The translations under genes were made by a program, and so were the position numbers. From Candidatus Uhrbacteria bacterium (GTDB lineage: Bacteria > Patescibacteriota > Patescibacteriia > 2-12-FULL-60-25), in contig QEVR01000001.1 of NCBI GenBank assembly GCA_003576745.1, forward strand, positions 310,001-374,000: a stretch of DNA of 64,000 nucleotides, read 5' to 3'. Positions 45,835 to 54,913 of this stretch are shown one piece after another. Position 1 is the first letter of the stretch; every line of letters begins with the position of its first letter. The notes beneath the pieces are model-generated. The model saw nothing but the letters and a program-made list of their open reading frames with translations. It was not told the origin of the DNA and searched no databases.

Positions 45835-46130
45835 TTTTTCGTTCTAGCAATTGGCGATTGGGAAAAGAGGGCAAAGAGCTAAGTGCAAAGGGAACGTGTT
45901 ACGTGTTATTGGTTACGGGTTCGGATTATGGGGTGCATGGCTCATGGCCCAAGGCTCATGACCTACGGACCTACGATCCTACAGACCTAGGGCAAAGAGT
46001 TTGGGGAGAATTATGTCCCACCCTACGCAACTACGTACTCTTTTCGCATCCCGCAACCCGCATACCGTATGGCGCAAGGCTCATGGCTCACGGCTCACGG
46101 CCACCCCTCCACTCCCCACTCCTTCATTCA
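45835..46130. repeat. Intergenic mosaic repeat, reverse orientation
   Basis: TTCTAGCAATTGGCGATTGGG, GGCAAAGAGCTAAGTGC, GGTTACGGGTTCGG, CCTACGGACCTACGATCC, inverted hairpin core at 46003-46020, CTACGCAACTACG, CGCATACCGTATGGCGC. No gene is seen. Confidence 0.87.
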
Positions 46131-50059: not shown

Positions 50060-50395
50060 AGAATCGCATGTAGGATTGCGGATGGGCGAATGACGAATTG
50101 CAGGTCTTGCGTCGTGAGCCGTGAGCCATGCGGTGAGCGGGTTGCGGGATGCGAAGAGAGTACGTAGGACGTGGTGCGTAGGGCGTAGGGGGGAAGAGTA
50201 CGTAGTTGCGTAGGACGTGGTTGCGTAGGGCGAGACCGTGCGTCATGAGACTTGCGTCCCGTAATCCGTTCCCTTTGCCATAGGTCTGTAAGATCGTAGG
50301 TCCGTAGGTTATGAGCCTTGGGCCATGAGCCATGCACCCCATAATCCGAACCCCGTAACCAGTAACCCGAAACCCGAACCCCCCGCTCACCGCAT
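50060..50395. repeat. Intergenic mosaic repeat (long)
   Basis: Over 330 bases with no gene. Words: GTGAGCCATGCGGTGAGCGG, GAGTACGTAGGACGTGGTG, GAGTACGTAGTTGCGTAGG, GTCTGTAAGATCGTAGG, CCGTAACCAGTAACCC. Unusual in lacking the hairpin core. Confidence 0.8.
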
Positions 50396-50883: not shown

Positions 50884-50945
50884 GACTCCTCCTTTCAAGG
50901 GACGCTTGTGTTCTACCGTGTCTGGCAAGATTGTCAATGTTTTTG

Positions 50946-50951
50946 CATACT
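50946..50951 (+). promoter_or_regulatory. Candidate -10 element for uvrC
   Basis: CATACT preceded by TTTTTG, with 6 bases to the ATG at 50958. Fits the leaderless pattern but is a degenerate -10. Confidence 0.45.
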
Positions 50952-50957
50952 ACCGGC

Positions 50958-52202
50958 ATGATCCCGAAAACCGTTCGTATAAAGGGAAAGACGCTGCCCG
51001 ACACGCCGGGCGTCTATTTGATGAAGGACGCGAAGGGGAAAGTCATGTACGTGGGAAAGGCGTCGTCGCTCAACAAACGCGTGAACCAGTATTTCCAGAA
51101 AGCGCATGATGCGCGCATTGAGGATATGGTGCGGCAAATTCGGAGCATCGAGTATATCCAGCGTGATACGGCGCTTGAAGCGCTCATTCTCGAAGCGAAT
51201 CTCATTAAGTTCTATTGGCCTCCGTACAATGTCCTCGGAAAGGACAATAAGAGTTTTTTGTATCTTGCGATCACGAAAGAAGAATATCCGCGGCCGATAT
51301 TCGTGCGCGGCCATGATCTTGGCGAGGACGCGTCAAAAACATACAAAGCCGTCTTCGGGCCGTATACCTCACCGCGCTCTCTTCGTGCGGCGCTTGATGT
51401 GCTTCGAAAAGTTTTTGCGTGGACTTCATGCACGCCCGGCATGAAACGGCCGTGTTTTTATTATCATCTTAAACAATGTCCGGGCGTTTGCATCGGCGTC
51501 GCAGACAAGGAGTCATACCAAAAAACCATTCGCGATCTCATCAGATTTTTTGAAGGAAAAAAAGACGTGCTTTTGCGGGATTTTCGAAAACACATGAGGC
51601 GGGCGGCAAAAGAGCATCGTTTTGAAGAAGCGGCGGCATATCGTAACAAGATTTTTTTTCTGGAACATATTCAAGACGTCGCCATCCTTAAACGGGAACA
51701 CGAGGCTGTGGATAAGATTCTGGAAGGGGAGACAAGCGTGAATATCTTCGGCCGCATCGAAGGATATGATGTGTCGAATATTTCCGGAACCTCCACGGTC
51801 GCGAGCATGGTGGTATTTGAGCAGGGAGCGCCGGCGAAATCTGAATATCGCAAATTTCGTATCCGTTCAGTACGCGGCTCTGATGACATTGCTTCGCTTC
51901 GGGAGACGCTTATCCGCCGCTTTCGCAATCGCTGGAAACATCCGGATATTATCCTTATAGATGGCGGTAAGGGGCAGGTAAATATTGCAACAAGTGTTTT
52001 ACGACACTTGAATCTTGCTATTCCGGTTATCGGCATGGCCAAAGGCCGTACGCGCAAGAAAACCGATCTTGTCTGCGACGACACCAATCTCGAACTTTGT
52101 AAACTCTGCCAGAAATATCTCAATCTTTTTATTCAGGTCCGAGATGAAGCGCATCGTTTCGCAATCGCCTATCACAGGAAAGTAAGGAGGATGAAGGCGT
52201 GA
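50958..52202 (+). CDS. uvrC: UvrC, short form lacking the C-terminal HhH domain
   Basis: A 414-residue version of the UvrABC incision nuclease (usual length about 600). The GIY-YIG domain (PGVYLMKDAKGKVMYVGKASSLNKRV) for the 3' cut, the Cys-rich region (CTPGMKRPCFYYHLKQCPGVC), the UVR-like helix (RRAAKEHRFEEAAAYRNKI) and the RNase H-like domain for the 5' cut (GYDVSNISGTSTVASMVVF, IILIDGGKGQVN, RDEAHRFAI) are all present. It stops right after the last motif; the tandem helix-hairpin-helix tail is missing. No frameshift is visible that would restore it, since mosaic begins at once. ATG 50958 is preferred over a TTG at 50931. Confidence 0.93.
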   Translation: MIPKTVRIKGKTLPDTPGVYLMKDAKGKVMYVGKASSLNKRVNQYFQKAHDARIEDMVRQIRSIEYIQRDTALEALILEANLIKFYWPPYNVLGKDNKSFLYLAITKEEYPRPIFVRGHDLGEDASKTYKAVFGPYTSPRSLRAALDVLRKVFAWTSCTPGMKRPCFYYHLKQCPGVCIGVADKESYQKTIRDLIRFFEGKKDVLLRDFRKHMRRAAKEHRFEEAAAYRNKIFFLEHIQDVAILKREHEAVDKILEGETSVNIFGRIEGYDVSNISGTSTVASMVVFEQGAPAKSEYRKFRIRSVRGSDDIASLRETLIRRFRNRWKHPDIILIDGGKGQVNIATSVLRHLNLAIPVIGMAKGRTRKKTDLVCDDTNLELCKLCQKYLNLFIQVRDEAHRFAIAYHRKVRRMKA

Positions 52203-52204
52203 GG

Positions 52205-52480
52205 GCGGTTTTAGCTATTAGCTGTTGTTAAAATTAGCAATTGGCAATGGGTACTGGGGCCATTCTAGTGTTCTAGAGTTTTAGGGTTTTATGGTTGGGA
52301 ACGGGGATCGGGTTTAGGATGAACAGCATATCCTACAAACCTACGGTCTTACGGACCCAGGATCCTAGAGACCTAGGGCAAGGGGCAAAGAGTTCCGGGA
52401 GAACCATGCTCCCCCTACGCACTACGTCCTACGCAACCACGCAACTACGTCCTACGTACTTTTCGCATCACGCATCTCGT
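52205..52480. repeat. Intergenic mosaic repeat, reverse orientation
   Basis: TTAGCAATTGGCAATGGG, CTAGAGTTTTAGGG, CTACAAACCTACGGTC, GGGCAAGGGGCAAAGAG, inverted hairpin core at 52396-52415, CTACGCACTACGTCCTACG. It ends at the terminator of the next minus-strand gene. Confidence 0.85.
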
Positions 52481-52483
52481 TAA

Positions 52484-52515
52484 TGAAAACGCGCCCGGGG
52501 TAAGGCGGACGCGTT
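52484..52515 (-). terminator. Terminator of the DnaA-domain gene
   Basis: On the minus strand AACGCG and CGCGTT close a 16-base loop, followed by TTTTCATT. The hairpin overlaps the stop codon at 52514. Confidence 0.65.
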
Positions 52516-53275
52516 AGTCATAGTGGAGGTAGAGTTCAAGCTCATGAGGCCGGCATTTTGCCGATGATGAATATTCGCCGCAATGCATGGTGGCCACAAT
52601 CCACGCATCCTGATCGCCGGCGGTGCGCAGGCTTATGTACAATTCGGCGCTTTGCGTGAGCAGACGGACGAGCGATTCGGATACGACGCGCTCCCAGGAG
52701 ATTGCCTCATTGCTGAACGCAGCGACATCGATGGCCGATACGGGGAGCAAATCCATCTCGAGCGGATTCGGGAATTCTACCCGGGCGACGGTGCCGTTCA
52801 GAAAATTAATCGAAGCGATGGTATTCCCGTTGCGTCGTTCCAGCGTGTAAGAGAGTTTTACGCCGTGTTTGAGCCCCAGGTTCCGGAAAGAGCACCGCAA
52901 GGGCGTCTCGCCTTCTCTTGCGGGGTACAAAAGATGCATGCGCTGCCAGCGCGACAATGATCCAACGATTTGCTGGGTAAGGAGCAGAAGATCTTTGCGC
53001 AGATCCGGCGTCTCTTTGGACTGATATGCGATACGACGGACGGCAGACATGGCCGTCGTATGATCCTTTTTCCCCATGAGCGCGCTTATTTCGGGGAATG
53101 ACAATTTCGCATGCTCTCGAAGCAAATACATGGCCACGTGCCGTGCCAGCGCAACGCGCTTGTGCCGGTCGCGTTTTTGTAAGTCTTCGACGCGGAAGCC
53201 GTAATAGGCTGCGACGAAATGGAGGATCTGCATCGACGGATGCAGCAGGTCAATACGCTGCGTTGTTTTCTCCAC
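52514..53275 (-). CDS. Protein with isolated DnaA domain IV plus unknown C-terminal domain
   Basis: A 253-residue protein. Residues about 16-85 match the C-terminal DNA-binding domain of the replication initiator DnaA: YYGFRVEDL, RHVAMYLLREHAKLSFPEI and the hallmark KKDHTTAMSAVRRI. The AAA+ ATPase, domain I and linker of DnaA are missing, and the remaining 165 residues are not recognised. So it should bind DnaA boxes but not load helicase. The GTG at 53275 is the longest start; an ATG at 53233 would still keep the domain. It is divergent from mraZ. A function as regulator of cell-division genes or a DnaA competitor is an inference. Confidence 0.88.
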   Translation of the reverse strand: MEKTTQRIDLLHPSMQILHFVAAYYGFRVEDLQKRDRHKRVALARHVAMYLLREHAKLSFPEISALMGKKDHTTAMSAVRRIAYQSKETPDLRKDLLLLTQQIVGSLSRWQRMHLLYPAREGETPLRCSFRNLGLKHGVKLSYTLERRNGNTIASINFLNGTVARVEFPNPLEMDLLPVSAIDVAAFSNEAISWERVVSESLVRLLTQSAELYISLRTAGDQDAWIVATMHCGEYSSSAKCRPHELELYLHYD

Positions 53276-53335: not shown

Positions 53336-53377
53336 GGGAAATGAAGCGCATCCGTATTTATGATGTGGGAAATGACG

Positions 53378-53386
53378 TTATTCACA
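53378..53386 (+). promoter_or_regulatory. DnaA-box match in the divergent control region
   Basis: TTATTCACA fits the DnaA-box consensus TTATnCACA exactly. A weaker match (TTTCCCACA on the minus strand, 53365-53373) lies 5 bases to the left. It sits between the two promoters of the DnaA-domain gene and mraZ, so it could be the target of that gene's product or of DnaA itself. Confidence 0.45.
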
Positions 53387-53448
53387 TGAAACAGAAATAG
53401 AACAACTTTTTAGCTGTATTTAGCTAAGAAATTTGTTTCATAGAACCT

Positions 53449-53477
53449 TTGACCATTTGATTATAGTGGCATAGAAT
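53449..53477 (+). promoter_or_regulatory. Promoter of the mraZ operon
   Basis: TTGACC (53449-53454), 17-base spacer, TAGAAT (53472-53477). Start of transcription would lie in the MraZ repeats, leaving a leader of about 100 bases. Confidence 0.82.
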
Positions 53478-53501
53478 GGGAGCAAGTGGTGATAAGTGGG
53501 A
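53477..53501 (+). promoter_or_regulatory. MraZ operator (three direct repeats)
   Basis: TGGGA (53477-53481), TGGTG (53487-53491), TGGGA (53497-53501), spaced exactly 10 bp apart and beginning in the -10 hexamer. MraZ is known to bind such TGGGA direct repeats with about 10 bp period, so autoregulation is likely. Confidence 0.78.
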
Positions 53502-53583
53502 AACATAGAGGCGGGAGATTTCAACCGACTCTTCCGATTCGCCGGCCAAAATAGTCGGCGTGTCATTCCAGGCACCCAGTGGC

Positions 53584-54015
53584 ATGTTCATCGGTGAATA
53601 TCGTCATACCCTTGATGACAAGGGTCGGTTGTCGGTCCCCATCAAATTCCGCGATGACGTTGCTCATGGCCTCGTCATTACCCGCGGTTTGGACCGATCT
53701 CTTTTCCTGTACCCAAAGAACGAGTGGGAGCGGCTTGCACAAAAGCTCGCCGCTCTTCCTCTCGGACAGGCTGACACGCGCGCCTTCGCCCGACTCATGC
53801 TTGCGGGCGCCATGGAGGCAGAACTCGACGGCTCCGGCCGTATCGTCATTCCTCCCTATTTGCGCGCATATGCCGGTCTCCGAAAAAAAGTCGTTCTTAC
53901 CGGCCTTATGGATCGTATGGAAATCTGGGACGAAGCGTCCTGGGACACCTATCGCGCGGCAACCGAAGCGAACAGCGATGCGATCGCTGAACGGCTCGGC
54001 GACCGTGGGGTCTAA
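53584..54015 (+). CDS. mraZ: Transcriptional regulator MraZ
   Basis: A 143-residue DNA-binding protein that heads the division and cell-wall (dcw) cluster and represses it. Two SpoVT-AbrB-like halves: FIGEYRHTLDDKGRLSVPIKFR at the start and AELDGSGRIVIPPYLRAYAGL in the second half, with Asp-x-Lys-Gly-Arg and Asp-Gly-Ser-Gly-Arg as key loops. Start is the ATG at 53584, which gives the standard N-terminus; a GTG at 53560 would add eight residues. The gene follows its operator by about 80 bases and precedes rsmH by 4. Confidence 0.95.
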   Translation: MFIGEYRHTLDDKGRLSVPIKFRDDVAHGLVITRGLDRSLFLYPKNEWERLAQKLAALPLGQADTRAFARLMLAGAMEAELDGSGRIVIPPYLRAYAGLRKKVVLTGLMDRMEIWDEASWDTYRAATEANSDAIAERLGDRGV

Positions 54016-54019
54016 CGCT

Positions 54020-54913
54020 ATGGCTTCTCTGCATAAAGCGGTGATGACGCAAGCCGTCATAGACGCCATCAGCTCAAAGCAGGACGGTCGCTATGCCGAC
54101 GGGACGCTTGGCGGAGCTGCGCATACGCGGGCGCTCTTGAATGCATCTGCTCCGCATGGGCGCGTACTGTCTCTGGACCTAGACCCCAAGGCAATCGAAG
54201 CGGCGCGTACATTGCTTGCGCCATACGGAGAACGGTGGATCGGCGTCGAGGCGAATTTTCGCCACATCGATCGCATCGCGGATGAAAACGGGATGACGCC
54301 GCTTGACGGCATCATTCTCGACCTCGGTCTGTCATCGGACGAGCTTCTGGATGCCTCCAAGGGTCTTTCCTTTCAGATCGATGGTCCTCTGGACATGCGT
54401 TTGGGGCCGAAAGCTAATGAGGACGGGATGACGGCGGCGGAAATCGTCAACACGTGGTCGCAGGAAGAGCTGGGAAAGATGCTCCGCGTCTTCGGCGAGG
54501 AACCGCATGCATACCGCATCGCCAAGGAGATTGTCCGCGCGCGGAAAGCCGCGCGCATCGTGGGAACGCTGGATCTTGTAAGCATTATTAAGCGATCCGC
54601 CCCCTCTTCTCCTCATTCGCGCATCCATCCGGCGACACGCACGTTCCAGGCGCTCCGTATTGCCGTGAATGACGAACTCGAATCTCTCAAACAAGCTATT
54701 CAGGCGGCGTATCGTGCGCTCAAACCCGGGGGACGTCTGGCGGTACTTTCCTTTCATTCATTGGAAGACCGCATTGTCAAGCGCGCATTTGCGGGTCCGG
54801 AATGGAATGTGATCACAAAAAAACCGATCACGCCCGACGAAAAAGAGATTCGTGAAAACCCGCGCTCGCGAAGCGCAAAACTCCGCGTTGCGGAAAAAGC
54901 CGTACAGTCCTGA
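54020..54913 (+). CDS. rsmH: 16S rRNA m4C1402 methyltransferase RsmH (MraW)
   Basis: A 297-residue SAM-dependent enzyme that methylates N4 of C1402 in 16S rRNA. Motifs DGTLGGAAHTRALL, LSLDLDPKA, GIILDLGLSS and VLSFHSLEDRIVK are as in the family. Length is slightly short (about 310). Second gene of the dcw cluster as in most bacteria. Confidence 0.96.
   Translation: MASLHKAVMTQAVIDAISSKQDGRYADGTLGGAAHTRALLNASAPHGRVLSLDLDPKAIEAARTLLAPYGERWIGVEANFRHIDRIADENGMTPLDGIILDLGLSSDELLDASKGLSFQIDGPLDMRLGPKANEDGMTAAEIVNTWSQEELGKMLRVFGEEPHAYRIAKEIVRARKAARIVGTLDLVSIIKRSAPSSPHSRIHPATRTFQALRIAVNDELESLKQAIQAAYRALKPGGRLAVLSFHSLEDRIVKRAFAGPEWNVITKKPITPDEKEIRENPRSRSAKLRVAEKAVQS

What the first reader, a model, noticed from the sequence alone, without database searches (positions are those of the whole stretch)
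52514..53275. Stand-alone DnaA domain IV protein divergent from mraZ
The DnaA DNA-binding signature (KKDHTTAMSAVRRI and the preceding helix) is intact but there is no AAA+ domain; the remaining two thirds are of an unknown fold. The gene faces mraZ across a 300-base region holding a DnaA-box match, and MraZ direct repeats. It could link DnaA-box occupancy with division-gene expression, a control circuit I do not recognise from the literature.
Basis: partly seen in the sequence, partly recalled or inferred. Interest (0 to 1): 0.75.

Follow-up and report, generated by a model that had tools for sequence, protein, structure and literature searches.

The report
Lone DnaA DNA-binding domain beside mraZ
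A small-genome bacterium carries an extra gene that holds only the DNA-gripping end of the replication starter DnaA, facing the cell-division genes across a DnaA-binding site that is conserved in its whole family, so the site (and perhaps the extra protein) could tie division-gene expression to DNA replication; the gene itself is unique to this species.

Summary
The 253-aa ORF at 52514-53275(-) has a strong DnaA domain IV match (Pfam Bac_DnaA_C, 79 bits, residues 16-82), no AAA+ domain and an orphan C-terminal part. A full-length dnaA exists elsewhere in the same assembly, so it is not a broken dnaA. The interpretation splits in two. (1) The gene beside mraZ is not conserved: it is absent from three same-genus genomes and from every uvrC-mraZ spacer read in the family, and no relative of its C-terminal part was found in about 760 genome draws of its class and phylum. 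recA, nrd and dnaA upstreams are enriched too, so this looks like a DnaA-box regulon that includes the division cluster. The stand-alone protein is best read as a species-specific DnaA-box-binding regulator added to it (unproven). Extra DnaA_C proteins, some fused to sigma-factor regions, occur in 13 of 383 genomes of the class.

The parts
52514..53275 (-). stand-alone DnaA domain IV protein gene, 253 aa (GTG start)
   Evidence: codon-usage score best in this frame for both halves
53030..53230 (-). Bac_DnaA_C (DnaA domain IV), residues 16-82; keeps equivalents of E. coli R399, R407, D433, H434, T435, T436
   Evidence: 79-82 bits; alignment; residue roles from established E. coli domain IV-DNA structure work (recalled, not re-tested)
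52517..52963 (-). orphan C-terminal part, residues 105-253, weakly predicted beta-rich
   Evidence: no Pfam match at E 10; no relative in 381 class genomes, 380 phylum genomes, plasmids or phages; AF2 single-sequence model poor, pLDDT 46.6
53365..53373 (+). GTGGGAAAT, start of the conserved upstream block
53378..53386 (+). DnaA box TTATTCACA, conserved position 89 bp before the MraZ box
53388..53404 (+). GAAACAGAAATAGAACA element (family consensus GGAACAGAAAAAGAACA), unknown binding site
53410..53427 (+). small hairpin TTAGCT-GTATTT-AGCTAA; in several relatives a terminator-like stem plus T-run at this place
   Evidence: sequence and family comparison; not called as a terminator here
53449..53477 (+). 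mraZ promoter: TTGACC - 17 - TAGAAT
   Evidence: 10 of 12 matches; conserved in family
53467..53500 (+). MraZ-type box: four TGG units, period 10, overlapping the -10
53560..54015 (+). mraZ (likely true start ATG 53584)
54020..54913 (+). rsmH, second gene of the division cluster
   Evidence: synteny in 20 relatives
50931..52202 (+). uvrC, left border of the variable spacer
   Evidence: synteny in 18 relatives

Best explanation
The gene encodes a DnaA-box-binding regulator without initiator activity: domain IV for DNA binding joined to an unrelated, fast-evolving C-terminal domain. It was probably gained in this species and inserted between uvrC and the pre-existing, family-wide regulatory block of mraZ. 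The block's DnaA box (normally read by full-length DnaA) lies about 100 bp from the start of the new gene and 89 bp before the MraZ box and promoter of mraZ. Most likely the protein occupies this box, alone or in competition with DnaA, and adjusts its own and mraZ-rsmH transcription; other boxes in the genome (recA, nrd, dcd) could be affected too. Shown: the domain, intact contact residues, and the conserved box, promoter and MraZ site. Inferred: the gain, binding, competition with DnaA, the sign of regulation and the role of the C-terminal part.
For: Domain IV 79 bits. Box-contact residues kept (KKDHTT, R399 and R407 equivalents), as in an ordinary Sungbacteria DnaA with the same GKKDHTT; several other solo proteins have altered this motif (RDHST, NHST, RDNST). 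Conserved box and promoter block. The genome has 26 TTATNCACA against 7 reversed-pattern controls, including sites at recA, nrd, dcd and mraZ. Domain IV is joined to sigma-70 region 2/4 in three other proteins of the class, consistent with its use in transcription. A full-length dnaA is present.
Against: The gene is absent in all relatives examined, so the conserved box cannot have been maintained for it. No promoter for the gene was recognised by the simple scan. The C-terminal half has a weaker coding signal (0.076 bits/codon against about 0.3 for core genes). No expression or binding data.
Confidence: 0.45

Rival explanations
1. Bystander in a variable spacer: a gained or fast-evolving ORFan with a DnaA-like HTH that happens to lie between uvrC and mraZ; the conserved box is read by full-length DnaA only and the protein's targets are elsewhere or none.
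For: The uvrC-mraZ spacer holds unrelated genes in relatives (glpK-like, glmS-like, tsaB-like, or nothing). The gene is unique to one species. Dispersed repeats lie just downstream of it, 52383-52415.
Against: Box-contact residues are intact rather than drifted. The domain scores 79-82 bits. The gene faces a DnaA box about 100 bp from its start.
Confidence: 0.3
2. Replication modulator: the protein competes with DnaA at origin or reservoir boxes and delays initiation (a natural dominant-negative domain IV); the mraZ site is only one of several boxes it touches.
For: Same box-contact residues as DnaA. The genome has only 26 exact TTATNCACA sites, so one extra binding protein could titrate them.
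Against: No origin-linked conservation of the gene; solo domain-IV proteins are sporadic (13 of 383 genomes with any extra PF08299 protein). No exact TTATNCACA box in 20 kb around the own dnaA, so the origin is not mapped and the idea could not be tested.
Confidence: 0.15
3. Decayed second dnaA or pseudogene fragment.
For: The domain is clearly homologous to DnaA domain IV.
Against: The frame is open for 260 codons and scores best by codon usage in both halves. The C-terminal 150 residues do not exist in DnaA. The 284-bp region upstream of the start is largely the conserved mraZ block, not AAA+ remains. The domain does not group with the family's own DnaA in the tree, although support is weak.
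Confidence: 0.05

Closest known systems
DnaA acting as a transcription factor on division genes (B. subtilis ftsL promoter binding; Caulobacter ftsZ), reviewed in PMC8203912
   Same: A DnaA box lies upstream of a division-gene promoter, and nrd/repair genes also carry boxes.
   Different: Here the box sits at a fixed distance from an MraZ box in a reduced-genome lineage, and the genome adds a second protein with only domain IV. The division-gene targets in the review are ftsL and ftsZ; mraZ is not mentioned there.
Non-initiator uses of Bac_DnaA_C (HUH/RAYT-type transposases with a C-terminal Bac_DnaA_C, PMC6006769; Bac_DnaA_C counted among prokaryotic TF families, PMC7017128)
   Same: Domain IV used without AAA+.
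   Different: No HUH/Y1 domain here. The solo domain is N-terminal and followed by an orphan, probably beta-rich part. The box-contact motif is intact and a DnaA box lies next to the gene.
MraZ-autoregulated dcw promoters (E. coli, Mollicutes; from established knowledge)
   Same: TGG direct repeats with period 10 overlapping the mraZ promoter.
   Different: Four repeats, preceded by a conserved DnaA box and a GGAACAGAAAAAGAACA element.

Membership tests
DnaA (chromosomal replication initiator) | Domain IV helix-turn-helix with DnaA-box contact residues | tested here: met
   PF08299 79 bits; alignment
DnaA (chromosomal replication initiator) | AAA+ ATPase domain III (and domain I) | tested here: not met
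   Pfam and NCBIfam match only the C-terminal part
Stand-alone Bac_DnaA_C proteins | PF08299 above cut-off with no other known domain, in a genome that also has full dnaA | tested here: met
HUH/RAYT transposase with DnaA_C | Y1/HUH endonuclease domain | tested here: not met
   no Pfam match besides PF08299
Sigma-factor-linked DnaA_C proteins of this class | Sigma-70 region in the same protein or the neighbouring gene | tested here: not met
   none in the protein; own sigma-70 region 2 genes lie at other places
DnaA-box-regulated promoter | Conserved TTATNCACA near the promoter | tested here: met
DnaA-box-regulated promoter | DnaA or stand-alone protein binds and changes transcription | not testable with these tools
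   needs binding and reporter assays
MraZ-regulated dcw operon | TGG repeats with period 10 in the mraZ promoter | tested here: met

The most novel reading that the evidence does not exclude
In this class of small-genome bacteria the DnaA DNA-binding domain has repeatedly been detached from the initiator and turned into transcription regulators (solo, Zn-ribbon-like, sigma-factor fusions). The window's copy is one that moved in beside a conserved DnaA-box switch of the division cluster, giving a two-protein competition (DnaA versus the lone domain IV) that sets division-gene expression by replication state.
Probability: 0.3. Interest if true: 0.75.

Novelty: new variant of a known kind. Interest (0 to 1): 0.55.

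Why it matters
[quoted passage not shown] A fixed-position DnaA box upstream of mraZ across a family, with recA, nrd and dnaA upstreams enriched too, gives a simple, testable link in a lineage with little known regulation. The stand-alone domain IV protein is a natural competitor with which to probe it.

Tried and rejected
Broken dnaA or sequencing break: rejected, full dnaA is present. mraZ spacer as replication origin: rejected, no GC-skew switch in the window and a single exact box in the spacer. Rfam element at the block: no match. Phage or plasmid origin: phage hits were only to the domain IV part, at most 45% of the query; no C-terminal relative in phages or plasmids and no relative in viral contigs; PHROGs only E 0.15 and above. 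C-terminal fold: AF2 without relatives gave pLDDT 40.8 and 46.6, and Foldseek found nothing at E <= 0.001, so no fold is claimed. Tree of domain IV: too few columns; the window copy falls weakly with the G031 accessory protein (87/36) and not with its own DnaA.

Full report
The gene. The ORF at 52514-53275(-) encodes 253 aa. Pfam gives one family, Bac_DnaA_C, residues 16-82, 79 bits. The DnaA equivalog model aligns only at its C-terminal end. Residues 104-253 match nothing in Pfam at E 10. Against solved structures the significant matches are all to DnaA domain IV. The helix-turn-helix keeps KKDHTT, and aligned by hand to E. coli DnaA (recalled) it keeps the equivalents of R399, R407, D433, H434, T435 and T436. 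The same GKKDHTT occurs in an ordinary Sungbacteria DnaA. Codon usage favours this frame over the other five in both halves, more weakly in the C-terminal one (0.255 and 0.076 bits per codon).

Not a broken dnaA. The same assembly (1.06 Mb, 4 contigs, 97% complete) has a full-length dnaA on another contig.

The arrangement is not conserved. uvrC-mraZ-rsmH order holds throughout the family, but what lies between uvrC and mraZ varies, and in no other genome read is it this gene. Three same-genus genomes have only their ordinary dnaA. The C-terminal 168 residues have no convincing relative in 381 class genomes, 380 phylum genomes (the two samples overlap), plasmids or phages, and the whole protein found only six matches confined to the DnaA domain IV part in a pattern-based scan of 84,980 species genomes; the one read in full is an ordinary dnaA. 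The gene is therefore a species- or near-species-level novelty in present data.

The DnaA box is conserved. In relatives, the block before the mraZ promoter reads AGTGGGRAAT-n4-TTATCCACA-TTGGAACAGAAAAAGAACA, a hairpin region, then TTTGACC-n17-TAKAAT, with TGG repeats of period 10 overlapping the -10. Exact TTATNCACA within 300 bp upstream: mraZ 14 of 31 (0.38 expected from first-order simulations), dnaA 8 of 23 (0.28), recA 9 of 31 (0.38), nrd 3 of 18 (0.13); uvrC, rsmH, clp-like, a small conserved gene and mraY, 0 of 92 in all. Other families of the class: mraZ 4 of 9 within 400 bp (0.15 expected). In 24 of 28 family loci with the anchor, a site with at most two mismatches sits 89-91 bp before the MraZ box, from 12 genera; its positions 2, 8 and 9 never vary. 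The register was chosen by the box itself among three shifts, which inflates conservation slightly, and the genomes share ancestry, so the counts are not independent events. In the own genome the motif occurs 26 times against 7 for the reversed pattern; sites lie 95 bp before recA, 243 bp before a gene with an N-terminal ATP-cone in a 1089-aa frame (taken as a ribonucleotide reductase) and at the start of dcd.

Wider context. 13 of 383 genomes of the class have extra PF08299 proteins. Three are joined to sigma-70 regions: one with alpha-CTD, sigma region 2, region 4 and DnaA_C in 782 aa, and two with DnaA_C plus region 4. Two more lie beside a sigma-70 gene, RNase III and a DEAH helicase (the last two named from sequence, not scanned). 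Several solo copies have changed the recognition motif. Domain IV is thus reused outside initiation in this class, at least partly in transcription.

Mechanism. The best-supported reading is a regulator that binds DnaA boxes, including the one it faces, and competes or cooperates with DnaA there. Shown: domain, intact contact residues, conserved box and promoter. Inferred: binding, competition, the effect on mraZ. Main rival: a bystander in a variable spacer while ordinary DnaA serves the conserved box.

Known versus new. DnaA as a regulator of division genes is known (PMC8203912), and PF08299 outside DnaA is known (PMC6006769, PMC7017128). A text search for DnaA box and mraZ together returned no title that links them, and those papers were not read. 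New here, as far as the library searched shows, are the fixed-position box at mraZ across this family, the sigma-DnaA_C fusions, and this particular solo protein beside the box.

Noticed in passing
L131:5860-8208(-) (G410): 782-aa protein with RNA polymerase alpha-CTD, sigma-70 region 2, region 4 and a C-terminal DnaA domain IV: a sigma factor fused to the DnaA DNA-binding domain.
   Followed up: partly
L135:5116-6516(+) (G323); L129:5135-6055(+) (G105): Two further proteins that join DnaA domain IV to a sigma region 4-like HTH, in different families of the class.
   Followed up: partly
L033:3205-10654 (G029); L036:4262-11909 (G031): Shared cluster of DEAH helicase, DnaA_C protein, RNase III and an extra sigma-70 factor in two genera of the family; partners carry Cys-rich Zn-ribbon-like N-termini.
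   Followed up: partly
window 53388-53404 and the same place in relatives: GGAACAGAAAAAGAACA element directly after the DnaA box, as conserved as the box, with no match to a known site.
   Followed up: partly
G000 recA, nrd, dcd upstreams (L151, L159, L152): Exact DnaA boxes upstream of recA and nrd and at the start of dcd; family-wide enrichment for recA, nrd and dnaA upstreams suggests a DnaA regulon.
   Followed up: partly
L137 (20 kb around own dnaA): No exact TTATNCACA near dnaA in this genome; the origin is not obvious there. Three boxes lie within 1.6 kb near the end of contig C1 (98872-100453).
   Followed up: no
window 45917-46099, 50108-50353, 52383-52415: Dispersed intergenic repeat in three places, two of them an 81-nt inverted pair with 96% complementarity, bracketing a 910-aa gene and a 383-aa gene.
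   Followed up: no
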